IMG/VR virus record: IMGVR_UViG_3300037264_003947
Location: 1-59,304 of that record
Source of the DNA: a virus
DNA length: 59,304 nucleotides
Reading direction: 5' to 3' (one strand)
Of this stretch, positions 4,608-20,283 are shown piece by piece; position 1 is the first letter of the stretch, and each line of letters starts with the position of its first letter. The notes below the pieces were generated by a model. The model ran no database searches and was not told the origin of the DNA. It was given only the letters and a program-made list of their open reading frames with translations. The position numbers and the translations under genes were made by a program.

Positions 4608-6484
4608 AAATATTCTTCCCTACCAATTCCATATTTTCCCTTGAAAAATAGATCTTCAGAATTTCCTTCTTTTTCATCAGATGAAACAAATTCAAACTTA
4701 TTTTTCTGATCTTCTTCGTTTACAACTTTATCTTTACTCTCTGAGTACTCTATAAATTCACCTTTTTCGTTAATCATAAAGCTTTCACCAGAGTTACTAG
4801 CCTTATGTCTCAAATAGAGTGCAAGTGCAAACGCCATTATAGCATCATCGGTCGAACCAGAGTCGTGAACAGGTTTAGTTCCATCCCAAATCCACGTAGC
4901 CATTTCCATATAGACCCGTTTTGAGTACATTTTGAGTTCCGAAAAGAGTCCATCTACGGTAAACCAGTCAATGAATTCATTTGTCAACAATTTTCTAGTC
5001 TTTGTATCAGTAATCCATCCAGTCATTCGTGTAATATTATTTTTTGTCTTTGCTTGTTTAAATACATTTTGATATGGCTCTGTATCGTGATAATAAACTT
5101 CGTTAAATACAGCTTCACCAATACCATTACATTCTATTACTATGAACGCTTGATTATAATAATTGGCTACTGCTTTCACCATCACACCAAAATTTTTAGT
5201 AGCCATCATTCCTTTATATTCGCAAACTTGTTCATAAGTTTCTACATCTAAAACCTGGAACGAAGAAGTTTCTGCTCCTGTTCCAGAAGCAATATCTACT
5301 CCCATTATATAGCGATGTCCACGCAAAGGATTTCCCCATACCCAAACATTATCCATTCTAACGCTACCAATTCTTCCTTGTGTAATGGGGTCTTTAATTC
5401 TACCTTCAACTTTCTTCAATGTGTCTTCGTTGAATACAGCGTTTCCACCTACTATAAAGTTGTGTAATACTTCTTGTTTATAAAGAATTTCACCTAAGTC
5501 ATCGTGTTGCTTTTTGAGCCAAGGATTTTCTCTCCAGTTATTTTCGCCAATTGGATCAAAAAATTTCTTTGCTTCTCTTTTTACTTCTGGATTATAATAA
5601 TAATCTTTCTCAACGAAACGCTCTAGTATTTGACTATAGCCTTTTTTAGGTCCATCTATTTCTACAGCATCGGGCACTTCCCACCAGTCAACAGAAACTA
5701 ATCTAGTATTATTTTCTGACTCCATTTTTGCTTGCTGGACCTGTTCATAATAATAAGCGCCAGGTCCAGATGTTTTATTTGGAGTTGAGAGAATAATGAA
5801 TTGTCCATTTGTTCTAGAAAGTGTAGGTTGAGCGGCGGCAACAATTCCGCGAACCATTTTTTCTGATTTGTAGTGTGCTGCCTCATCAAGCACTAACAAT
5901 GAAAGAGTATCAGAACGGCCAGCATTTTCTGATTGGCTCTCTGATATGATTTTGCTTCCATTTTCAAACTGAAGCACTTGTTCGTTGTCTTTAACTATTC
6001 TTGTTCTTAAGAAAGGTGGTAAATATTTTATAGTAGAATCCATTTTTGCTACAAAGGCTTGTGCCTTAAGTTGCTTCAATGAAACTACATCTATATCTTC
6101 AGCTTCCCTGAAGTTTAGTTTCCACAAACAATACATAGAAAATAGTGTTGATAGTCCGCACTGACGAACTTTTTCGCATACCATTTTTTGGAATTCTAAT
6201 AAATCTCTTAAAATACTTCTTTGGAAATAATATAGATTAAATGGTATAATGCCTACATTTGGTAAACTTATCCAGGCATAACGATGGATGAAATAATAAG
6301 GAGACATTTTACATAAAAATCTCTCTATTCCAGTATCTATTAGTTCTGTTGTTCCATCACTATATTGTGTTTCAGTAAACACATCATTAGCAGTTTCTAT
6401 TGCGTCATCAAAAGTAGTTTTTATTCTGTAAAATTTTATCTTTTTTTCAATTGACTCTACAAACTTTTTTTCTTCTTGGTTCAT
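4586..6484 (-). CDS. terL: Terminase large subunit
   Basis: The 632-residue motor ATPase and nuclease packages DNA through the portal. The ATPase half has an adenine/Walker A region KVRQCGLSTLFSMY (about residues 103-116; Ser replaces the usual Lys/Thr context, a deviant P-loop also found in some phages) and Walker B LLVLDEAAHY followed by ILSTPNK as coupling motif. The nuclease half shows the three acidic clusters MGVDIASG, VIECNGIGE and STDDAIMAFALAL of the RNase H-like fold. Length and order match T4 gp17-type terminases. Confidence 0.95.
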   Translation of the reverse strand: MNQEEKKFVESIEKKIKFYRIKTTFDDAIETANDVFTETQYSDGTTELIDTGIERFLCKMSPYYFIHRYAWISLPNVGIIPFNLYYFQRSILRDLLEFQKMVCEKVRQCGLSTLFSMYCLWKLNFREAEDIDVVSLKQLKAQAFVAKMDSTIKYLPPFLRTRIVKDNEQVLQFENGSKIISESQSENAGRSDTLSLLVLDEAAHYKSEKMVRGIVAAAQPTLSRTNGQFIILSTPNKTSGPGAYYYEQVQQAKMESENNTRLVSVDWWEVPDAVEIDGPKKGYSQILERFVEKDYYYNPEVKREAKKFFDPIGENNWRENPWLKKQHDDLGEILYKQEVLHNFIVGGNAVFNEDTLKKVEGRIKDPITQGRIGSVRMDNVWVWGNPLRGHRYIMGVDIASGTGAETSSFQVLDVETYEQVCEYKGMMATKNFGVMVKAVANYYNQAFIVIECNGIGEAVFNEVYYHDTEPYQNVFKQAKTKNNITRMTGWITDTKTRKLLTNEFIDWFTVDGLFSELKMYSKRVYMEMATWIWDGTKPVHDSGSTDDAIMAFALALYLRHKASNSGESFMINEKGEFIEYSESKDKVVNEEDQKNKFEFVSSDEKEGNSEDLFFKGKYGIGREEYLWLIGKR

Positions 6485-6505
6485 AATATTCCTTATATAT
6501 TATAT

Positions 6506-6778
6506 ATGGATGATATAAATAAAAGATGGGAAGATGCTATAGCAAAAGCTAAAATATTATTGGTTCAATATAATGAGCTTGATAAGACGCACGAAAAATA
6601 TACTTTTCGCTCTGTTATAGACGCTCTAGAAGCTTACCTTTACTTAGCAGATGTTTATAAAAGAGAAAGCATTGCCGTATTACATAGACTAGAAGCTATG
6701 ACTTTAGATATAGAGGCGTGGAGAGATAGAATACCTATAGGACCAGGCAGAAGAAAAATGGGACACGATTTTATCTAG
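6506..6778 (+). CDS. Small helical protein, lone plus-strand gene in the head operon
   Basis: The ATG at 6506 gives a 90-residue helical protein (MDDINKRWEDAIAKAK...) ending in PGRRKMGHDFI. An in-frame ATG 30 bases upstream lies in AT-rich sequence overlapping the terminase start, so the inner start is preferred. It is the only plus-strand gene between 1 and 23.6 kb and overlaps the minus-strand 6771-7199 gene by eight bases at their 3' ends. Amino-acid composition is protein-like. No family is recognised. Confidence 0.5.
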   Translation: MDDINKRWEDAIAKAKILLVQYNELDKTHEKYTFRSVIDALEAYLYLADVYKRESIAVLHRLEAMTLDIEAWRDRIPIGPGRRKMGHDFI

Positions 6779-10162: not shown

Positions 10163-10631
10163 AGGTCCCACTGCTAAACGCCAACTTTTCTTTATTTGCT
10201 TCAAACCATTCAAGAGCATTATGCTTGGACTTTTGTGCTTTGCCAGCGCCAATCCAATCACATACCATTTCTTTAATATAAACTTCAGGTATATCAAATA
10301 TTTTTTGGTGTTGCTCACTCTTGTCATCCTTATCAAATGGAAGAACCCAATACTGCCAATGATGTTTATTCTTTCTTGTATGGTTTAACCATGCATATTC
10401 AAACTCTTCATTGCCAGTGTCATATGGTTTGTAATAACCTGTTTCGTCTCTTATGGATTTAATATCCCCATAAAACATTCTAGCATAGGGAAAAAATTCT
10501 TTTGGAGAAAGCTTGCTCAGATCGTGAACTAGCCCTCTCCAAATAATTCCCATTTTGGCACATTCTAAAAAGACATACCATTTATGAGCAAGAACATATT
10601 TCAAGCAGTTTAAATAATTTTTGCACTTCAT
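10116..10631 (-). CDS. DUF5662-like phage protein
   Basis: The 171-residue protein has the landmarks WRGLVHDLSKLSPKEFFPY, YAWLNHTRKNKHHWQYW and DWIGAGKAQ, typical of a DUF5662-type family common in large phages. The paired histidine/aspartate residues (HDLSK, NHTRKNKHHW) suggest an HD-like metal site and possibly hydrolase activity, which is inference. It is coupled to the receiver-like gene by a four-base overlap. Confidence 0.7.
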   Translation of the reverse strand: MKCKNYLNCLKYVLAHKWYVFLECAKMGIIWRGLVHDLSKLSPKEFFPYARMFYGDIKSIRDETGYYKPYDTGNEEFEYAWLNHTRKNKHHWQYWVLPFDKDDKSEQHQKIFDIPEVYIKEMVCDWIGAGKAQKSKHNALEWFEANKEKLAFSSGTYGNIEKLLASLFGKD

Positions 10632-11011
10632 CCAATTGTTATATCTCTTTTGATAAGACCATTGGCAAGAGTATTGAAAGGAAGAAGCATTGAACCTTCA
10701 AGTAAAGCATTCATGTTTTTAGCACCATCAGGATTGATGGAGTGAATAATAATCTTTGCCTTGCCCAAATCTTTGGTTGATAAAAACTTAGCAAACTTAT
10801 GTCCAGTATTCGCATCTTCGGAACTCATATAGAACTCGCCATCTAGATCGTGGTCTAGTAGAAATAAACTAAATGGCTTGTTTTTCTCAAACATGACTTT
10901 TGCTTCTTCTACATTTTTTGTAACAAAAAGTTCAAAATCACGATTGGAGAAATACCACTTGAAGAACTTGATTCTGTCTGGATTATCTTCTAGTATAAAA
11001 ATCTTTCTCAT
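10628..11011 (-). CDS. Response-regulator receiver-like protein (cyclic-phosphate processing receiver type)
   Basis: The 127-residue protein starts MRKIFILEDNPDRIKFFKWY, with the acidic pair of receiver domains, continues with LFLLDHDLDG where the phospho-acceptor Asp would sit, and ends with a strand IIIHSINPDGAKNM. The LDHDL variant is the one seen in stand-alone phage and bacterial receiver-like proteins proposed to act on cyclic phosphates. There is no output domain. The family call is good; the biochemical activity is uncertain. Confidence 0.7.
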   Translation of the reverse strand: MRKIFILEDNPDRIKFFKWYFSNRDFELFVTKNVEEAKVMFEKNKPFSLFLLDHDLDGEFYMSSEDANTGHKFAKFLSTKDLGKAKIIIHSINPDGAKNMNALLEGSMLLPFNTLANGLIKRDITIG

Positions 11012-11729: not shown

Positions 11730-11770
11730 ATAGAACTCCTTGTGTTCTATATGCCATATATGATTCGAAC

Positions 11771-11843
11771 TAGGGGTAGAGGGAATCGAACCCCCAATCA
11801 ACAGATTAGAAATCTGATGCCTTATCCGTTAGGCCATACCCCC
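11771..11843 (-). tRNA. tRNA-Arg (anticodon UCU)
   Basis: The acceptor GGGGGTA pairs with TACCCCT. The T-arm is GGGTTCGATTCCC-like, and the anticodon loop TTTCTAA sits on a CAGA/TCTG stem and reads AGA, a codon heavily used in this AT-rich genome. No CCA is encoded. Confidence 0.88.
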
Positions 11844-11849
11844 AAATTG

Positions 11850-12059
11850 TTATTCCTTCATTTGAAGGATTAATGCCTCATAAACCATGCGTGGAGTTAG
11901 AACAAAAGCATCAATTCCTTCTGGATGATTTGGCCCTACGGTACAATCCCTTTTAAATGGACCATAATAAACAGTGGCATTTTTTCCCTGCTTATTTAGT
12001 TCATTAACCTTATCATAGATTTCTGTAAGGGTTCCAATAAAAGTAAATCGCTTTTCCAT
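11850..12059 (-). CDS. Unknown 69-residue protein
   Basis: The start at ATG 12059 (MEKRFTFIGTLTEIYDKVNE) has AAGGAAG six bases upstream; the longer frame would overlap tRNA-Gln. The alpha/beta protein contains NATVYYGPFKRDCTV and a helical end. It lies between two tRNA genes. No family is recognised. Confidence 0.6.
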   Translation of the reverse strand: MEKRFTFIGTLTEIYDKVNELNKQGKNATVYYGPFKRDCTVGPNHPEGIDAFVLTPRMVYEALILQMKE

Positions 12060-12071
12060 ATTAACTTCCTT

Positions 12072-12143
12072 TTGGGGCAGATGGATTCGAACCACCGCGT
12101 GCAAGCTTCAGAGACTCGCGCCTTACCACTTGGCCATGCCCCA
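12072..12143 (-). tRNA. tRNA-Gln (anticodon CUG)
   Basis: The acceptor TGGGGCA pairs with TGCCCCA, and the D-arm GCCAAGTGGTAAGGC and T-loop GTTCGAATC are canonical. The anticodon loop CTCTGAA reads CAG. The U1-A72 pair is typical of glutamine tRNAs. Confidence 0.85.
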
Positions 12144-12149
12144 TAGCAT

Positions 12150-12220
12150 TGTCCCGGAACGGTTCGAACGTTCGACCTTGAGCTTCAAAGACTCCAACTC
12201 TACCAGCTGAGCTACGGGAC
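12150..12220 (-). tRNA. tRNA with anticodon UUG (Gln)
   Basis: The acceptor GTCCCGT pairs with CCGGGAC apart from the last pair. The D-arm GCTCAGCTGGTAGAG is canonical and the T-arm carries GTTCGAAC. The loop CTTTGAA gives anticodon UUG. The first anticodon-stem pair is mismatched, so the identity is less sure than the existence of the tRNA. Confidence 0.78.
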
Positions 12221-12267
12221 ACAATTATATCTTCACAAATATATTATAACGGATTTATTATTTTTCG

Positions 12268-12450
12268 TCAATCGCTTGCAAGATCTTTTGGTTTTCTTGC
12301 TGTAGCGTGACAGGAATCACACTCTGCCTGTGGAGTTAGCTTACCATGAGCAAATCTGGAGACAACTTTTACGATTCCACCACAACGACAAAGATTAGTC
12401 TTTGTCTTTACGTTATGGCCTACTTTTGCCTGACCCTTTGGGACGTTCAT
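12268..12450 (-). CDS. Small zinc-ribbon protein
   Basis: The 60-residue basic protein has CRCGG at about residue 21 and CDSCH at about residue 44, forming one zinc ribbon with a basic tail (ATARKPKDLASD). It could bind nucleic acid. It overlaps the 12413-12589 membrane-protein gene by 38 bases. No specific family is recognised. Confidence 0.6.
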   Translation of the reverse strand: MNVPKGQAKVGHNVKTKTNLCRCGGIVKVVSRFAHGKLTPQAECDSCHATARKPKDLASD

Positions 12451-12589
12451 TTACAATCACTTCCTTCCTAACTGGTTTCTTTACTAAACGATACTTAATC
12501 AAAATATACATTAATCCAAGTGTCTCAATGATAGAAATAATACACAGCGCTATAAAAGCAACTGTAAAAATACCATCTAAATTTTGCAT
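12413..12589 (-). CDS. Small single-span membrane protein
   Basis: The 58-residue product starts MQNLDGIFTVAFIALCIISI, with one transmembrane helix at about residues 7-31 and a basic tail. Its ATG overlaps the stop of the 12589-12759 gene in TAATG, so the two are translationally coupled. The function is unknown; holin- or anchor-like roles cannot be told apart. Confidence 0.55.
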   Translation of the reverse strand: MQNLDGIFTVAFIALCIISIIETLGLMYILIKYRLVKKPVRKEVIVNERPKGSGKSRP

Positions 12590-12759
12590 TACTTTTTACT
12601 AGGAAGACAGGCCACTACGATTAGGCCAATAATGCCCAAGAAAAATCCCCAGCAAAAACCACCACCTGGACTTCTTCCCTTCTCCTTACTAATATATCTA
12701 GTAATAAGACCAAGACCAACCCAAACCGCTAGCGAAATAACCCAAACCAATGGCTCCAT
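12589..12759 (-). CDS. Small two-span membrane protein
   Basis: The 56-residue product has hydrophobic segments VWVISLAVWVGLGLI and FFLGIIGLIVVACL separated by a charged, Gly-rich turn (SKEKGRSPGGG). That hairpin layout suggests both ends on the same side of the inner membrane. It is encoded in the tRNA cluster and coupled to the next gene. No family is recognised. Confidence 0.55.
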   Translation of the reverse strand: MEPLVWVISLAVWVGLGLITRYISKEKGRSPGGGFCWGFFLGIIGLIVVACLPSKK

Positions 12760-12768
12760 TTTAAACTC

Positions 12769-12882
12769 CTATCTCTTTGGCTTTTCGTAAGCTTTTGAAT
12801 TTACTTTTGGACGCCTTAGAACAGCTCCAACGCCAATTATAATAATTACCAATGCAATTGAAAAACCTATTAAACCATTCAT
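12769..12882 (-). CDS. Very small single-span membrane protein
   Basis: The 37-residue product (MNGLIGFSIALVIIIIGVGA...) is one hydrophobic helix with a basic tail. It is the first of three consecutive tiny membrane proteins read in the same direction. The preceding sequence has an SD-like GAGGTAAG. Confidence 0.5.
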   Translation of the reverse strand: MNGLIGFSIALVIIIIGVGAVLRRPKVNSKAYEKPKR

Positions 12883-12894
12883 TTTACTTACCTC

Positions 12895-12966
12895 TGAGGC
12901 CACCAGGGTTCGAACCTGGGCATGGAAGATTAAAAGTCTCCTGGCTTACCACTTGCCTATGACCCC
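12895..12966 (-). tRNA. tRNA-Lys (anticodon UUU)
   Basis: The acceptor GGGGTCA pairs with TGGCCTC and the T-arm CCAGGTTCGAACCTGG is perfect. The loop CTTTTAA on a GGAGA/TCTTC stem reads AAA, the commonest lysine codon here. Confidence 0.88.
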
Positions 12967-13079
12967 AATTTCATGACGACCCGTAAAGAACGACACTTAG
13001 GACAAAAGTATTCTATCCATTTCAAGCCTTCGCTCTTTTTGATCATTTCACGATTGCACTTGTCATTAGGGCAATTCAT
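12957..13079 (-). CDS. Tiny zinc-ribbon protein
   Basis: The 40-residue product MNCPNDKCNREMIKK... has CPNDKC and CPKC, one zinc ribbon. A strong ribosome site AAGGAGGAGC lies six bases before the ATG at 13079, which supports the gene despite its size. Its last ten bases overlap the tRNA-Lys gene. Confidence 0.65.
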   Translation of the reverse strand: MNCPNDKCNREMIKKSEGLKWIEYFCPKCRSLRVVMKLGS

Positions 13080-13103
13080 AAGCTCCTCCTTTTTAAAAGA
13101 ATT

Positions 13104-13430
13104 TTAACCTCTATGAGAATCTATATCTACCGTAAAGCGCATGTTAGGATCAGCACTCTCGCCAGTTAGAATAGCAATTACGTCAACGTCTCTAATGAGA
13201 ACGTATTCCTTCTTGCCTTCCTTACGGCGAATCATTGCTCCATAAGCATTAACAGCAACCTTCATTCCAGACTTTAGGTCTCTATCTTTTACATAGGGAC
13301 CAACAGAAACTATAGTTCCCTCAAACTGCTTTTCAGGCATAATCTTTGGGGGGATAATAATTCCATTAATCATCTTCTCTTCGTTTCCCTCTTGCTCTAT
13401 CACCAAATAATTCTGTAACGGAATAATCAT
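13104..13430 (-). CDS. GroES-like co-chaperonin
   Basis: The 108-residue protein follows the Cpn10 pattern: PLQNYLVIEQEG, a mobile-loop region with GIIIPP, then GTIVSVGPYV, LKSGMKVAVNAYG and YVLIRDVDVIAIL. It caps GroEL during folding, as T4 gp31 does for the major capsid protein. The mobile-loop part (KMINGIIIPPKIMPEKQ) keeps the hydrophobic anchor. It stands alone between tRNA genes. The extra C-terminal residues (about 15) are unusual but mild. Confidence 0.85.
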   Translation of the reverse strand: MIIPLQNYLVIEQEGNEEKMINGIIIPPKIMPEKQFEGTIVSVGPYVKDRDLKSGMKVAVNAYGAMIRRKEGKKEYVLIRDVDVIAILTGESADPNMRFTVDIDSHRG

Positions 13431-13451
13431 AAATGCTCCTTTTAAATTATA

Positions 13452-13523
13452 TACGGGATGTAAGATTTGAACTTACGACTTTTACGGTGTAAACGTAACA
13501 CTCTACCGCTGAGTTAATCCCGC
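13452..13523 (-). tRNA. tRNA-Val (anticodon UAC)
   Basis: The acceptor GCGGGAT pairs with ATCCCGT and the D-arm ACTCAGCGGTAGAGT is canonical. The anticodon arm TTACG-TTTACAC-CGTAA reads GTA, and the T-arm GTAAGTTCAAATCTTAC is perfect. Confidence 0.88.
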
Positions 13524-13524
13524 A

Positions 13525-13716
13525 TTAAACAACTATCGTATTCAAAAAATCTTCTAATGTCCAAGCATAACGATGTATGTATGTATAATGATTCTTGTAT
13601 TCTGTTGGTTTCTGTTTTGTTTCGAGCCCTATTCTTAATTCTCCTGCTATTTTTTTACCGTAAGTAAAAAATCTTTTAGTAAATAGACCGTGTATAAGCA
13701 ATACTTTGTTTGTCAT
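13525..13716 (-). CDS. Possible small protein between tRNA genes
   Basis: From ATG 13716 a 63-residue frame (MTNKVLLIHGLFTKRFFTYG...) fills the gap between tRNA-Val and the next tRNA. Extension upstream would overlap that tRNA. No ribosome site is evident, so this may be an unused frame. Confidence 0.35.
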   Translation of the reverse strand: MTNKVLLIHGLFTKRFFTYGKKIAGELRIGLETKQKPTEYKNHYTYIHRYAWTLEDFLNTIVV

Positions 13717-13724
13717 AAAAATAT

Positions 13725-13797
13725 TGGGAGTATCTGGATTTGATCCAGTTTTCATGGTTTATAAGACCAATGAGAACACCGTCCTCAACCTACTCCC
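13725..13797 (-). tRNA. tRNA, divergent, probable anticodon UAU (Ile)
   Basis: The acceptor GGGAGTA pairs perfectly with TACTCCC. The T-arm (CTGG-ATCAAAT-CCAG) is recognisable although position 54 is A. The loop CTTATAA gives UAU, which would read AUA. The D-arm is weak and the first anticodon-stem pair is a mismatch. The 3' end overlaps the HNH gene end by 13 bases. Confidence 0.6.
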
Positions 13798-14210
13798 TTG
13801 TTTGTTCTACCCCTAAATCTATAATTCTTATCAATTGCCGAATGACAATTTGGGCAAACAATTAAAAGATTTTCTCTTTTATTATTTTTATTGTCATCAT
13901 CTATATGATGAATTTCTAACCAAATTTGTTTTCCCAACCATTCATTGTTCTTACAAACTTCACAAGAATTTTTAGCTTCTTCAAGTAAAACCTTTCTCCT
14001 AAATTTAGGACTTAGTTTCTCATATAATCCTAGTTCTAAATAACTTTCATTGTTTACCCTGTGTCTCTCTACAGTTTTTTCCGTAGATTTTTTTCTATCT
14101 TCTTCTGTGAAGACATGTCCTCCACGATAAACGTGAGTTCTTCCCTTTAAGGATTCTCTTATCTTATTTTTAGTCTCTTCTGTATGTTTAAAACCAATTT
14201 CTCTAGACAT
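13785..14210 (-). CDS. HNH homing endonuclease with NUMOD3-like motif
   Basis: The start at ATG 14210 gives MSREIGFKHTEETKNKIRES, which resembles the NUMOD3 DNA-binding module of homing enzymes. The second half has CEVCKNNEWLGKQIWLEIHHIDDDNKNN and LLIVCPNCHSAID, a zinc-stabilised HNH core with the HH pair. It is placed between tRNA genes, a usual landing site for such elements. Confidence 0.85.
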   Translation of the reverse strand: MSREIGFKHTEETKNKIRESLKGRTHVYRGGHVFTEEDRKKSTEKTVERHRVNNESYLELGLYEKLSPKFRRKVLLEEAKNSCEVCKNNEWLGKQIWLEIHHIDDDNKNNKRENLLIVCPNCHSAIDKNYRFRGRTNKGVG

Positions 14211-14264
14211 TAACCTTATATTACATTTTACAATATATATCAATTTCTGTCAATTTATTTTACG

Positions 14265-14339
14265 CCAGAGTAGCGGGGTTCGAACCCACAAGTCGTCGCG
14301 TTCGTAGCGCGAAATTTTATCCATTTAAACTATACTCTG
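14265..14339 (-). tRNA. tRNA-Arg (anticodon ACG)
   Basis: The acceptor CAGAGTA pairs with TACTCTG, the anticodon arm TCGCG-CTACGAA-CGCGA is perfect, and the T-arm GGGTTCGAACCC is canonical. It reads CGU. The discriminator base is G. Confidence 0.85.
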
Positions 14340-16798: not shown

Positions 16799-16847
16799 AT
16801 TGCCTCCTATAAAAATTTATAGGGGGTTTAGAACCCCCTATTAAAAA

Positions 16848-18440
16848 CTAGAGATTTCCATTTGCGATCATCTGGATAAATCGTGGAGTCTCAGAGGAGA
16901 AACCAGCGATATCGTAGGACTTGTTATCCTTTGGATCGCTCAAAGAACTTCTATCGGAATAAGGAGTAAGAACAACGTAGATGATTTTCGCATCAGCGTT
17001 AATCGTGTCCCTATACTTCTTCATCAAGGTAACAGGTTGCTTGCCCTGCCAGTTCTGTCCATCAGTCCAAATCACAAGGTTATCAGCCTTGAGCTTGTTG
17101 TCGATGGCAAACTGAATTGCACTTTCAACGTCAGTTCCAGCAGGAGTCATTGGCATGAAGCCACGGCTCAAAGCTTCCTTGAAAGAGGTCGTCTTTCGAA
17201 GCTTTGGAAAATCGCTCGTTGTGGTCGTAAAGGCAGAAGTAAAGTAATACTTCTCTGCCTTGATCGTAGCAAGAGCCATGATCGTAGCGACCTCGGAAGG
17301 TGTCATCCACATCGTCTCCAAAGGAGCAGTCTGCATAGAGCCAGAAACGTCGATTGAATGATAGAATACCTTGTTGGTTGGCTCAAGAGCAGTGAAAGCC
17401 TCTTCAACCGCCTTCTCAAGAATATCCTCGACAACTGGATGAGCAACCCAAGTCAACTGAGAACGACCAAGAGTTCCACTAGCAGAGTAAATCTTGTAGG
17501 CAGAAACGATGTTGATAGGGTGAACCCTACCCTTCACCAATCTCTCTTTCGTGAACTTCTCTTCAAGAACCTTGAGGTTCTCAATGTTGGTGAAAATACC
17601 CTTGTTAGTCAAATTGGCCAAGTTACGCAAAGTAGCCGTAATAGGCATCTTGGTGAAAAGAGCTTCCCAAATACCCTTGGTTCGTGCTACGTTTGCTGGA
17701 ATCATTTCCTGAGTCAAACCGAAATCAAGGATTGCCTTGATGACATCTGCCTCTTTCATATTTCCAGTCTTGAGAGACTCATAAATCCCGATGAGAGGAA
17801 GAGTCTCAATAGAAGCCTTCTTATCAGCCATCCAAGCAAACAGATTGCTTTCGGATGCATCCCGTGGAACTGGCTTGATCTTCCGAAGAACATCACGACC
17901 AGCCCAATTGTATCTGCTCTGATACTTGAGGAACTGATACTCAAGGCCCTTTACATCATGAGACGTAATCCACTTCTCGACTGCGGAATGAATAAGTCTA
18001 CCAAAGCCACGAAGGCCCTTGGTATACTCAAGGAACTCATAAAGGTGAGAAGCGGTTCTCACAATCTTATTGAAGATCTGTGAGAAATAAACCTTTGCAT
18101 CAATACCTCCCATAGAGAGATAAACAAGAGCAAGCAAAGGCGTGTGGTTATTGATTCCATGATCACTTGCGTAAACGATTTCGTCCGCAACGACCTTTGG
18201 ATCTTTTGCAACCATGCAGGAAAGAATCTTGACGTTTTCAGTCGTCAACTCTTCCTTACCCTGATAGAAAAGGTTATTCTCAGAGCCAGTCAAGAGCCAG
18301 CGTCTAAGAGCCGTGAGGTCATCGGCCACGAAAGCCTTACCCCCAGCCATGTTCTCAGTCATTTCAGCCTCTCGGCCAGGAATAACCTGAGTAGCAAGAA
18401 CATCCTTCTTCTTTGTGTGGAACGTGTAGCCAGACTTCAT
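16848..18440 (-). CDS. rsr: Ro60/Rsr (TROVE) RNA-binding protein
   Basis: The 530-residue protein is a ring-shaped RNA-binding protein of the Ro60 family. The TROVE part (about residues 1-340) consists of helical repeats, with a characteristic start (QVIPGREAEMTENMAGGKAF), an arginine-containing RALLTGSE-like element seen as LRRWLLTGSENNLFYQG, and LRGFGRLIHSAVEKW. The C-terminal von Willebrand A domain has an intact metal site: DVSGSM at about residue 363, then PAGTDVESAI and IWTDGQNW. In bacteria Ro60 partners with Y RNAs, and with exonucleases, in RNA decay and stress. Six Y RNA-like units lie directly upstream on the same strand, so gene and RNAs are likely one system driven by the promoter at 19410-19438. 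Confidence 0.92.
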   Translation of the reverse strand: MKSGYTFHTKKKDVLATQVIPGREAEMTENMAGGKAFVADDLTALRRWLLTGSENNLFYQGKEELTTENVKILSCMVAKDPKVVADEIVYASDHGINNHTPLLALVYLSMGGIDAKVYFSQIFNKIVRTASHLYEFLEYTKGLRGFGRLIHSAVEKWITSHDVKGLEYQFLKYQSRYNWAGRDVLRKIKPVPRDASESNLFAWMADKKASIETLPLIGIYESLKTGNMKEADVIKAILDFGLTQEMIPANVARTKGIWEALFTKMPITATLRNLANLTNKGIFTNIENLKVLEEKFTKERLVKGRVHPINIVSAYKIYSASGTLGRSQLTWVAHPVVEDILEKAVEEAFTALEPTNKVFYHSIDVSGSMQTAPLETMWMTPSEVATIMALATIKAEKYYFTSAFTTTTSDFPKLRKTTSFKEALSRGFMPMTPAGTDVESAIQFAIDNKLKADNLVIWTDGQNWQGKQPVTLMKKYRDTINADAKIIYVVLTPYSDRSSLSDPKDNKSYDIAGFSSETPRFIQMIANGNL

Positions 18441-18514
18441 TTTCAGCTACCTCCTTGATAGAATTTGTGAGATAATTATACTAAATTTTTTGTTTTTTGT
18501 AAAGAGAAAACAGG

Positions 18515-18570
18515 GAACAAGTTTTTATCCAAAGGCTGCTTTTTCATAGTTAACCTTTAGAATTCAGTTC
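18515..18570 (-). ncRNA. Y RNA-like unit 6 (short)
   Basis: The unit starts GAACTGA and ends CTTGTTC, whose outer four bases pair (GAAC/GUUC). An inner helix CTAAAGG/CCTTTGG closes a loop beginning GTTAAC. It is the last unit before the Ro60 start at 18440 and carries no tRNA-like module. Confidence 0.5.
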
Positions 18571-18605
18571 TCTTTATTTAAGCAAAAAAAGTGCGGGAAC
18601 CAGGG

Positions 18606-18755
18606 CAACAAGAAAACGAATAATGATAAGCTTCATGATGATGGATGAATCTTATATCATTGCTGCTTTTTAAACCATGAAAAAGACTAGCGAAAACATA
18701 TCCTTAAATGCATCATTGGCTTCTAATGAATTTGTTAACGTCTTCTAGTCAGTTC
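18606..18755 (-). ncRNA. Y RNA-like unit 5 (long)
   Basis: The unit starts GAACTGA and ends CTTGTTG, a one-base departure from the other 3' elements. An inner helix AGAAGACG/CGTTTTCT closes a loop of about 120 bases starting GTTAAC. The loop contains no clear tRNA arms and no convincing reading frame. Confidence 0.5.
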
Positions 18756-18777
18756 CCGCTAAAGTTTCAAAGAAAAC

Positions 18778-18837
18778 GAACAAGAAATTGTCGATAGGCA
18801 CTAACTTTACAAATGTTAACCTAAAGACGAGCAGTTC
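18778..18837 (-). ncRNA. Y RNA-like unit 4 (short)
   Basis: The unit starts GAACTGC (TGC where the others have TGA) and ends CTTGTTC. An inner helix formed by GTC..TAGG and CCTA..GAC closes a small loop that starts GTTAAC. It follows tRNA-Gly directly. Confidence 0.5.
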
Positions 18838-18841
18838 GTTA

Positions 18842-18912
18842 AGCGACCAACGGGAGTCGGACCCGTTTGTAAACCTTGGCAAGGTTTCATAATACCGTTA
18901 TATCATGGTCGC
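18842..18912 (-). tRNA. tRNA-Gly (anticodon GCC)
   Basis: The acceptor GCGACCA pairs with TGGTCGC. The anticodon arm AAACC-TTGCCAA-GGTTT and the T-arm ACGGGTCCGACTCCCGT are complete. It is the only ordinary linear tRNA inside the Y RNA-like array and probably shares its transcript. Confidence 0.88.
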
Positions 18913-18961
18913 AAAAAAAGGGCAAGACTTGTATTTGGCAAAACAACCACTATAGGGAAAG

Positions 18962-19037
18962 TGGGCGAAGGATTCGAGCCTTCTATAAATTTTGGTTAGA
19001 AAATTTAATTATCCAGGTAACCAAATATCTTCAGCCC
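18962..19037 (-). tRNA. Degenerate tRNA-like element, identity unclear
   Basis: A perfect T-arm GAAGG-CTCGAAT-CCTTC is present, and GGGC at the 5' side can pair with GCCC at the 3' side. The middle instead forms a strong hairpin TTGGTTA/TAACCAA, and the anticodon loop has an even number of bases if its stem is fully paired. It is either a decayed tRNA or another tRNA-mimic RNA. Confidence 0.35.
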
Positions 19038-19056
19038 TATTATTTTCAAAGAAAAA

Positions 19057-19152
19057 GAACAAGGTTTAATAAGAAGTATGCCCCCACTGGGCTTCCCCCA
19101 CGAAGCGGGGGAAAGAAGATTCGAACTTTTGATAACTTCTCATTATCAGTTC
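19057..19152 (-). ncRNA. Y RNA-like unit 3 with permuted tRNA-like domain
   Basis: The unit starts GAACTGA and ends CTTGTTC. Its long stem is formed by TAATGAGAAGT and ACTTCTTATTA (11 pairs). Inside, in order, are a T-arm (AAAAG-TTCGAAT-CTTCT), a closed acceptor-like stem TTCCCCC/GGGGGAA with loop GCTTCGT, and a D-arm GCCC-AGTGG-GGGC. This is a tRNA cloverleaf opened at the anticodon arm instead of the acceptor end, the architecture described for YrlA-type Y RNAs. Function as a Ro60-bound tRNA mimic is inference. Confidence 0.65.
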
Positions 19153-19172
19153 TTTTTTAATTTCAAAATGGT

Positions 19173-19299
19173 GAACAAGTATTTAGAAAAGGATGTTTTA
19201 GTGCTCTATCCACTAAGCTACCAGCCCACGAAATGGGCTGAGTGAGAATCGAACTCACGACCACTCAATTGTATTTGATAACCCTTCTCAAGTCAACTC
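19173..19299 (-). ncRNA. Y RNA-like unit 2 with permuted tRNA-like domain
   Basis: The unit starts GAGTTGA (GAGU still pairs with GUUC through wobble pairs) and ends CTTGTTC. The stem GAGAAGG/CCTTTTC leads to a perfect T-arm GTGAG-TTCGATT-CTCAC. Then comes the 3' acceptor strand TCAGCCC, a linker ATTTCGT, the 5' acceptor strand GGGCTGG, and a canonical D-arm GCTTAGTGGATAGAGC. The 3' tRNA half thus precedes the 5' half. The linker is nearly the same as in unit 3. Confidence 0.65.
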
Positions 19300-19320
19300 A
19301 CCTTAATTATCAAAGAAAAG

Positions 19321-19398
19321 GAACAAGTATTTGAAAGACGATATTGCCCGAAGGCAGTTAATTTGCTGATAATTATGATAACGCCTCTCTGTCAGTTC
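19321..19398 (-). ncRNA. Y RNA-like unit 1
   Basis: This is the first unit after the promoter. It starts GAACTGA and ends CTTGTTC, with an inner helix GAGAGGCG/CGTCTTTC and a terminal hairpin TGCC-TTCG-GGCA. The segment after the first helix begins GTTATC, as in units 2 and 3. No tRNA arms are seen. Confidence 0.55.
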
Positions 19399-19409
19399 CT
19401 TATAAAACT

Positions 19410-19438
19410 ATCTTATCACTTCGATCGAATTCTGTCAA
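19410..19438 (-). promoter_or_regulatory. Sigma-70-type promoter of the RNA array
   Basis: TTGACA (19438-19433), a spacer of exactly 17 bases, then TAAGAT (19415-19410) match the housekeeping consensus closely. The start of transcription would fall near 19403, just ahead of unit 1, and the transcript could run through the array into the Ro60 gene. It implies transcription by the host holoenzyme early in infection. Confidence 0.75.
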
Positions 19439-19440
19439 GT

Positions 19441-20283
19441 CTACAAAGACAAAAACCACATTGGGTCTACCGTCTTTTCTCCAAAGTGAATTTCGTAATG
19501 AAGATGACAACCAGTCACTTCTCCACTAGAGCCCATAAGACCTACCACATCACCTTGCTTTACGACTTGACCTGATTTTGCTTTTATCTCGCTAAGGTGA
19601 GCGTACCAAGTCTCAAATCCTAACTCATGCTTAACTATAACTACCATACCATAAGTAGGATTTTCATATTCTACATAGGCCACAGTTCCATTCGCCGTTG
19701 CCTGTATTTCATCACCGAGCTTACCAACTAAATCAATTCCAGGATGGAACCTTAACTTGTCTTTATCTGCTACGAATAATCCCTCCCTAAATCCATACGC
19801 AGAAGATAATTTAACGGTTCCACTAGTTTTTACAGGATAGATGAAAGGTGACTCTTTAAAGTACCTATTAAAAATAACTACTCTATCCTTCAGTCCATAC
19901 AAAGAATCTAACAATTCTTTGTAAGAGTTGTATGCTTGCGTAGCATACTTAACGGTCATTTCGTCTGACCCATTAATTGCTGGTTCTAAGGAAGTTCCAC
20001 CTACAGGCATATTGGTGAAGAACATCAAATCAGCAATTTGTTTTACTACTGTCCTATAGCTCTCTTGTGTTTTGTAAGTATCGAAAACAATCTTTTTCCA
20101 CTTATCATTTTCTTCTTTTAATTGTGCATTCTCAACTTTTAATACTTCAATTTCGGCATTAACACTTGCTTGTGATACTGTTTTTCTAAACCCGAAAAAG
20201 AGGCCCAAGGCTATAATAGGAATCAACAAAAAAATAGCGAAATTCTTATTCAGCCTAAAGCCACGCTTAGGTTTCTTCTTCAT
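19441..20283 (-). CDS. M23 family metallopeptidase, membrane anchored
   Basis: The 280-residue protein has a basic N-terminus, a transmembrane helix (FAIFLLIPIIALGLFFGF, about residues 15-32), a coiled coil, and a C-terminal LytM domain. Zinc ligands are visible in FHPGIDLVG and CHLHYEIHFG, with HELGFETWYAHL supplying the third catalytic His. Such enzymes cut peptide cross-links in peptidoglycan. The anchor and coiled coil resemble host cell-wall hydrolases, so entry, lysis or envelope control are all possible. The stop lies at the promoter of the RNA array. Confidence 0.85.
   Translation of the reverse strand: MKKKPKRGFRLNKNFAIFLLIPIIALGLFFGFRKTVSQASVNAEIEVLKVENAQLKEENDKWKKIVFDTYKTQESYRTVVKQIADLMFFTNMPVGGTSLEPAINGSDEMTVKYATQAYNSYKELLDSLYGLKDRVVIFNRYFKESPFIYPVKTSGTVKLSSAYGFREGLFVADKDKLRFHPGIDLVGKLGDEIQATANGTVAYVEYENPTYGMVVIVKHELGFETWYAHLSEIKAKSGQVVKQGDVVGLMGSSGEVTGCHLHYEIHFGEKTVDPMWFLSL

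What the first reader, a model, noticed from the sequence alone, without database searches (positions are those of the whole stretch)
16848..19440. Phage Ro60 gene preceded by a tandem array of six Y RNA-like units
On the minus strand, six segments (19398-19321, 19299-19173, 19152-19057, 18837-18778, 18755-18606, 18570-18515) each start GAACTGA or a close variant. After about nine bases five of the six carry GTTATC or GTTAAC (the sixth has GTTATC slightly further in), and each unit ends CTTGTTC or CTTGTTG. The ends pair (GAAC/GUUC), leaving UGA opposite CUU, and then a second helix follows whose sequence differs between units while pairing is kept. From memory of vertebrate Y RNAs, the Ro-binding stem has C-CGA on the 5' strand opposite CUU-G on the 3' strand, the same geometry. 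A Ro60 gene lies directly downstream and a consensus promoter lies directly upstream. Single Y RNAs beside bacterial Ro60 genes are known; an array of six in a phage would be new as far as I know.
Basis: partly seen in the sequence, partly recalled or inferred. Interest (0 to 1): 0.95.

Follow-up and report, generated by a model that had tools for sequence, protein, structure and literature searches.

The report
Seven Y RNAs before phage Ro60
A phage carries, right in front of its gene for the RNA-binding ring protein Ro60, a row of seven small RNA genes built like the Y RNAs that bind Ro60 in animals and bacteria; similar rows turn out to be common in other phages and in cyanobacteria.

Summary
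A true tRNA-Gly sits inside it, and a Ro60 gene (TROVE + vWA, fold match to D. radiodurans Rsr) follows. Each unit has its own lower-stem sequence and pairs with its own 3' end. The true pairing is the best of 5,040 permutations for both stems, and across 36 phage units all seven lower-stem pairs show compensatory changes (covariation 0.94 against 0.32 shuffled). Unit 2 carries a YrlA-type tRNA mimic. The interpretation (Y RNA-type ligands of the adjacent Ro60) is well supported. The claimed uniqueness is not: arrays of 2-6 units accompany Ro60 in most phage loci that I sampled, including unannotated ones in named actinophages (Cece, Trina, Sixama, prophiGD43A-5), and in cyanobacterial chromosomes. 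Two things look new: a GGUUAYC motif at the 5' end of the loop, where animal Y and sbRNAs carry UUAUC; and, in cyanobacteria, the same Ro60-type hairpin in place of the anticodon arm of a complete tRNA scaffold. RNA expression, Ro60 binding and function are untested.

The parts
19410..19438 (-). Sigma-70-like promoter TTGACA-17-TAAGAT; transcription would start at the lower stem of unit 1
   Evidence: 10 of 12 matches; sequence
19318..19401 (-). Y RNA-like unit 1 (84 nt, no tRNA-like part)
   Evidence: fold -20.1 kcal/mol, z -2.9
19170..19302 (-). Y RNA-like unit 2 (133 nt) with YrlA-type tRNA mimic: T-arm, acceptor hairpin, D-arm
   Evidence: Rfam YrlA 33.7 bits, E 1e-4, below gathering score 69
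19052..19157 (-). Y RNA-like unit 3 (106 nt), T-loop-like sequence and strong inner hairpin
   Evidence: fold z -4.1
18919..19038 (-).
18842..18912 (-). tRNA-Gly(gcc), a normal tRNA inside the array
   Evidence: ARAGORN; Rfam tRNA 53 bits
18775..18840 (-). Y RNA-like unit 5 (66 nt, minimal)
18593..18759 (-). Y RNA-like unit 6 (167 nt); lower stem GCGGGAAC/GTTCCCGC, internal loop UGA opposite CUG
18515..18570 (-). Y RNA-like unit 7 (56 nt, minimal)
18475..18503 (-). Second promoter TTTACA-17-TATAAT, between array and Ro60
   Evidence: 11 of 12 matches
16848..18440 (-). Ro60 (Rsr) gene, 530 aa: TROVE + vWA_Ro60 domains
   Evidence: Pfam; PDB 2nvo E 1.5e-46; AlphaFold model pLDDT 80.9, Foldseek to 2nvo E 2.8e-24, TM 0.79/0.84
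16819..16841 (-). Terminator-like hairpin after Ro60 (10 pairs)

Best explanation
A phage Ro60 ribonucleoprotein locus: one Ro60 ring protein with a tandem set of seven Y RNA-type RNAs. Each unit is a separate RNA (or is cut from a common precursor) closed by its own lower stem, with a UGA/CUU internal loop that Ro60 recognises, then an upper stem and a loop that starts UUA[U/C/A]C. The common stem docks the RNA on the ring. The loops and inserts differ (bare loops in U1, U5 and U7; a tRNA mimic in U2; T-arm-like parts in U3 and U4), so the set would act as interchangeable gates or adapters, U2 in the manner of YrlA-type Y RNAs, which link Ro60 to PNPase. The likely use is to steer decay or repair of host and phage RNA, tRNA above all, during infection. 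Shown here: sequence anatomy, structure conservation, linkage to Ro60. Inferred: expression, Ro60 binding, adapter role, purpose. The confidence given is for the Y RNA/Ro60 part; for the adapter role alone it would be about 0.4.
For: Ro60 identity. Each unit pairs with its own 3' arm better than with its neighbours'. Covariation over 36 phage units: 94.4% paired, 93 cells changed on both sides, score 0.940 against 0.323 +/- 0.030 shuffled and at most 0.25 when slid. Internal loop YGA opposite C[UA]Y in nearly all units. Same architecture next to Ro60 in distantly related phages. GGTTA[TC]C within 1.1 kb upstream of Ro60: 23 in phages where 1.2 are expected (1 antisense); 62 in cyanobacteria where 2.0 are expected (1 antisense). 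YrlA match in U2 and in relatives L004 and L007. Known biology: Rsr binds the lower stem of bacterial Y RNAs and the Y RNA tethers PNPase (PMC4726728, PMC8394870). Phage Ro60 genes lie among tRNA genes here and in Sixama, GMA2 and Trina.
Against: No transcript, processing site or binding was tested. The Rfam YrlA score stays below its gathering score and no vertebrate Y RNA model matches. The U5 upper stem is weak and interrupted. Ro60 has its own promoter, so array and protein may be separately expressed. A PNPase partner and any effect on tRNA are inferred only.
Confidence: 0.83

Rival explanations
1. The array is mainly a leader of the Ro60 mRNA: Ro60 binds these hairpins in its own transcript and shuts off its synthesis (autoregulation), rather than free Y RNAs being the product.
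For: The array is upstream, on the same strand, with no strong terminator before Ro60. A single short Ro60-type hairpin ([U/C]UU-stem-loop-stem-[C/U]G) sits just before the Ro60 ribosome site in several relatives (L001, L006, L134, L142 with 5-7 bp; many cyanobacteria with 4 bp).
Against: Ro60 has its own better promoter downstream of the array (11 of 12). Some phages also place units downstream of Ro60 or far upstream among tRNA genes (Sixama, Cece). The test for the leader hairpin is weak: 5 of 40 with at least 5 bp where 1.4 are expected.
Confidence: 0.15
2. The tRNA-like units are decoys that soak up tRNA-cutting defence nucleases (or tRNA enzymes) of the host, with Ro60 only stabilising them.
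For: U2 and partly U3 and U4 mimic tRNA; a true tRNA is embedded and six more tRNAs lie nearby. PMC7790460 raises the same idea for YrlA as a competitive inhibitor of an anticodon nuclease.
Against: At least three units (U1, U5, U7) have no tRNA-like part, and the mimic lacks an anticodon loop: the Ro60 stem takes its place. PMC7790460 reports that YrlA is not itself cut by that nuclease.
Confidence: 0.12
3. Chance or low-complexity repeats, or degenerate tRNA remnants of the nearby tRNA cluster.
For: AT-rich DNA; tRNA genes all around; U4 and U3 contain T-arm-like sequence.
Against: Permutation and covariation tests, strand-specific motif enrichment and conservation across unrelated phages exclude it.
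Confidence: 0.01

Closest known systems
YrlA / bacterial Y RNAs (Rfam RF02553; Salmonella, D. radiodurans, M. smegmatis; Chen et al. 2013, 2014)
   Same: Next to Ro60/Rsr; closed by a lower stem; U2 has the T-arm, closed acceptor hairpin and D-arm in the same order.
   Different: Seven units in one array; most lack the full tRNA-like domain; GGUUAYC after the upper stem is not in the Rfam YrlA consensus; score below the gathering cut-off.
Phage Y RNAs (reported for mycobacteriophages by Chen et al. 2014 as cited in PMC12282133; here Tonenili, Dandelion, Sixama, Cece, Trina, FuzzBuster, prophiGD43A-5)
   Same: Arrays of 3-6 units with the same lower stem, YGA (or variant)/C[UA]Y internal loop, upper stem and GGUUAYC next to phage Ro60.
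   Different: Internal loop mostly CGA opposite CAU/CAC there, UGA opposite CUU here; the window has one unit more than the largest other array seen (six).
Vertebrate Y RNAs and nematode sbRNAs
   Same: Lower stem with C-[C/U]GA opposite CUU-G, upper stem, and UUAUC at the 5' end of the loop (PMC4726728, PMC4450293; vertebrate Ro site from memory and PMC4726728).
   Different: No conserved UG-CA in the upper stem; no match to the Rfam Y RNA model; no evidence of common descent.
Listeria phage P100/CKA15 Ro60-like locus
   Same: Strong promoter, three small closed-stem units, then a Ro60-like gene. CKA15 transcribes noncoding regions upstream of this gene at very high level and the protein is found in purified particles (PMC12282133).
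   Different: Protein falls in DUF2828/DUF7788, not TROVE; units have a different core (AACAGCAAUUACU), no UGA/CUU or GUUAUC. The paper's coordinates were not mapped onto these units.

Membership tests
Ro60/Rsr protein | TROVE domain plus Ro60 vWA domain | tested here: met
   PF05731 E 8e-23 and PF25045 E 6e-26, both above cut-off
Ro60/Rsr protein | Fold as in Xenopus/human Ro60 and D. radiodurans Rsr | tested here: met
   AlphaFold pLDDT 80.9; Foldseek 2nvo E 2.8e-24, TM 0.79/0.84
Ro60/Rsr protein | MIDAS-type DxSxS in the vWA domain | tested here: met
   DVSGS; D364, S366, S368 invariant in five phage relatives
Bacterial Y RNA | Encoded next to Ro60 | tested here: met
   74 bases between the last unit and the Ro60 start codon; same linkage in relatives
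Bacterial Y RNA | Terminal lower stem with internal loop for Ro60, conserved by covariation | tested here: met
Bacterial Y RNA | At least one unit with a tRNA-like domain (D, T, acceptor) | tested here: met
   U2: T-arm GTGAG/CTCAC, acceptor TCAGCCC/GGGCTGG 7 bp, D-arm
Bacterial Y RNA | Rfam YrlA gathering score (69 bits) | tested here: not met
   33.7 bits; the same sub-threshold level in L004 and L007, no hit at threshold in actinophages either
Bacterial Y RNA | Physical binding to Ro60 and, for YrlA type, to PNPase | not testable with these tools
   needs pull-down or gel shift
Vertebrate Y RNA / nematode sbRNA | UUAUC at the 5' end of the loop | tested here: met
   UUAUC in U1-U3, UUACC in U4, UUAAC in U5-U7; strand-specific enrichment next to Ro60
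Vertebrate Y RNA / nematode sbRNA | Upper stem GUG-CAC / UG-CA motif for DNA replication | tested here: not met
   upper stems vary freely, no such motif
Vertebrate Y RNA / nematode sbRNA | Match to the Rfam Y RNA model | tested here: not met
   not among matches at E <= 10

The most novel reading that the evidence does not exclude
Prokaryotic and animal Y RNAs share one ancient plan, including the UUAUC loop start, and prokaryotic Y RNAs derive from tRNAs whose anticodon arm became the Ro60-binding hairpin. In cyanobacteria the RNA is still a complete tRNA scaffold with this arm (7-bp acceptor stem, D-arm, T-arm, often encoded CCA). In YrlA and in unit 2 of this phage the same parts are circularly permuted: open at the Ro60 arm, closed at the acceptor. 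Tandem arrays give a simple route between the two forms, because a shift of the cut sites by half a unit turns one into the other.
Probability: 0.3. Interest if true: 0.87.

Novelty: new variant of a known kind. Interest (0 to 1): 0.66.

Why it matters
Bacterial Y RNAs are mostly known from one or two per species and by one Rfam model that misses all of these at its threshold. The locus shows that one Ro60 can be paired with many RNAs that keep the docking stem and change the rest, which makes the gate/adapter idea directly testable in cultured relatives (M. smegmatis phages Tonenili and Dandelion, Gordonia phage Sixama, Picosynechococcus sp. PCC 7002 plasmid pAQ7). The GGUUAYC motif in phage and cyanobacterial Y RNAs matches the UUAUC motif of animal Y and sbRNAs in place and sequence, whereas a review calls the two groups non-homologous (PMC4726728). 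In vertebrates and nematodes that motif has a role in DNA replication, so what it does in a phage is an open, answerable question.

Tried and rejected
Scan of genome contigs with a phage Ro60 alignment found nothing; a cyanobacterial Ro60 query worked. Nucleotide search of the array in GenBank phages found no relative of the array: the DNA is too diverged. Reading the units in the shifted register (3' stem of one unit with 5' stem of the next) was tested and rejected for the window and its phage relatives: own-arm pairing averages 6.2 of 7 against 5.1 for neighbours. TTA in the motif was part of the search pattern, so its invariance is not used as evidence; one search is the unbiased test. The loose descriptor is not significant over the whole window (7 hits, 4.8 in shuffles); the strict form and the permutation tests are. 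Key papers (Chen 2014, Sim and Wolin 2018, Sim 2020) are not held, so prior description of arrays or of the motif could not be excluded.
Full report
What is there. On the minus strand, between an M23 peptidase gene (19441-20283) and a 530-aa Ro60 gene (16848-18440), lie about 1,000 bases with no evident protein gene. They hold seven units of one design: lower stem ending in C (once U), UGA (once UGC), a short linker, upper stem, UUA[U/C/A]C at the start of the loop, variable loop, upper stem, short linker, CUU (once CUG), G, lower stem. A normal tRNA-Gly(gcc) lies between units 4 and 5. A promoter TTGACA-17-TAAGAT ends just before unit 1, and a second one, TTTACA-17-TATAAT, lies between unit 7 and Ro60.

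Is it real. Units of the array have different stems: AAGGAAC, GGTGAGT, AAAAAGAAC, AGGGC, AACGAAC, GCGGGAAC, GAAC. Each pairs with its own 3' end. Over all 5,040 ways to match 5' and 3' arms within the window, only the true one reaches 47 of 49 lower-stem pairs; for the upper stem, again only the true one (51 pairs). Over 25 units from seven phage contigs the within-array permutation p is 5e-5, the smallest possible with 20,000 shuffles, for each stem. Over 36 phage units including actinophages, 94.4% of cells pair, all seven pairs show changes on both sides (93 cells), and the covariation score is 0.940 against 0.323 +/- 0.030 shuffled. The choice of some 3' arms used pairing, so the numbers lean upwards a little, but outer pairs showing all four Watson-Crick types across anchored positions are hard to get that way.

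The protein. Pfam TROVE and vWA_Ro60 both pass their cut-offs; D. radiodurans Rsr (2nvo) matches at E 1.5e-46; the AlphaFold model matches Rsr and human and Xenopus Ro60 by Foldseek. The contig is a virus record of 59,304 bases with a T4-like portal, a terminase and a P2-type tail protein. Its nearest Ro60 relatives found are 45-50% identical, in other metagenomic viral contigs.

What it resembles. Unit 2 matches Rfam YrlA (33.7 bits, below the gathering score of 69) with T-arm, 7-bp acceptor hairpin and D-arm. YrlA matches appear at the same place in contigs L004 and L007. The internal loop and its place match the Ro60 site of vertebrate Y RNAs. In addition the loop starts UUAUC or a variant. 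Papers describe UUAUC at the 5' end of the loop as conserved in nematode sbRNAs and present in vertebrate Y RNAs (PMC4450293, PMC4726728), and the review calls bacterial Y RNAs non-homologous to the vertebrate ones. Here GGTTA[TC]C occurs 23 times in the 1.1 kb upstream of phage Ro60 genes where 1.2 are expected, and once on the other strand; for cyanobacteria 62 where 2.0 are expected, and once on the other strand.

How widespread. Same-strand arrays next to Ro60 (units that pass the descriptor, or by inspection): L001 4-5, L004 3, L005 2-3, L006 5, L134 2, L137 4, Tonenili and Dandelion 3 each, Sixama 5, FuzzBuster 3, Cece 5, Trina 4, GMA2 2-3, prophiGD43A-5 6 (44 of 48 lower-stem positions pair, 4 of 720 permutations as good). 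In some sampled phages (Phosso, BearBQ, Xanthomonas phage 10KY502B) no unit passed the descriptor beyond chance. In cyanobacteria most of the Ro60 genes sampled have 2-5 motif copies upstream. So the array is a variant of a wide pattern, at the upper end in number. None of these RNAs is annotated as a Y RNA in the records read; some overlap annotated tRNAs.

A second form. In cyanobacteria and in contig L137 the order is D-half, then the Ro60-type hairpin with its tip closed by a short loop (4 nt in 40 of 58, GNRA in 24 of 58), GGUUAUCG, then T-half; the two acceptor strands pair at all 7 positions in 33 of 40 cases, many followed by ACCA. Rfam's tRNA model spans the insert with up to 51 bits, although ARAGORN does not call them. 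This reads as a tRNA whose anticodon arm is replaced by the Ro60-binding hairpin. The window's unit 2 and YrlA are the circular permutation: acceptor closed by a loop, Ro60 arm open. Units 2 and 3 of L137, which pair poorly as open Y RNAs (4 and 5 of 7), fit this closed form. This part rests on sequence alone.

How it may work. Established: Rsr binds the lower stem of bacterial Y RNAs, and Y RNA tethers PNPase to the ring in D. radiodurans (PMC4726728, PMC8394870). Inferred: the phage makes its own Ro60 and a set of RNAs with a common dock and different heads, to direct RNA decay or repair during infection; the tRNA genes around Ro60 in this and other phages suggest tRNA as a target. In the P100-like Listeria phage CKA15, noncoding RNA upstream of a Ro60-like gene is among the most abundant RNA of infection and the protein is found in purified particles (PMC12282133); the P100 locus has closed-stem units too, with another core, so it is an analogy, not proof.

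Limits. No expression or binding data exist for this phage. The core papers on bacterial Y RNAs were not readable here, so the novelty of arrays, of the motif and of the tRNA-scaffold form is 'not found in what could be searched'.

Noticed in passing
L152 2467-2604, L140 3684-3938, L137 4513-4635 and other cyanobacterial Ro60 loci (L149-L178): Tandem tRNA scaffolds (7-bp acceptor, D-arm, T-arm, often ACCA) whose anticodon arm is a Ro60-type hairpin capped by a GNRA or other short loop and followed by GGUUAUCG; circular permutation of YrlA.
   Followed up: partly
L001 about 5906-5928, and L006, L134, L142, L152 just before the Ro60 start codon: A single short hairpin of the same kind (UUU/CAU-stem-loop-stem-UGA/CGA) abuts the Ro60 ribosome-binding site in several phages and many cyanobacteria: possible autoregulation by Ro60.
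   Followed up: partly
L130 38500-38130 (Listeria phage P100, upstream of gp165): Three closed-stem units with core AACAGCAAUUACU behind a strong promoter, in front of a DUF2828/DUF7788 (Ro60-like) gene: a different Ro60-type RNA family that may explain some abundant RNA in phage CKA15.
   Followed up: partly
L184 2696-2774, L182 3098-3306, L183 2560-2629: Record annotations of tRNA-Thr, tRNA-OTHER (pseudo) and tRNA-Ser overlap Y RNA-like units and are probably misread Y RNAs.
   Followed up: no
window 10628-11011 (-): Gene with a cREC domain (cyclic-phosphate processing receiver, PF20274, E 2e-12) about 6 kb downstream of Ro60, near the tRNA cluster; possibly linked to RNA end repair.
   Followed up: no
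window 11770-14339 (-): Six tRNA genes (Arg, Gln, Gln, Lys, Val, Arg) downstream of Ro60 on the same strand, interleaved with HNH endonuclease-like genes.
   Followed up: no
L141 5749-6160 and L145 5953-6374: tmRNA genes beside Ro60 and Y RNA units in Gordonia phages GMA2 and Sixama; GMA2 also has a Pistol ribozyme match at 6470-6526.
   Followed up: no
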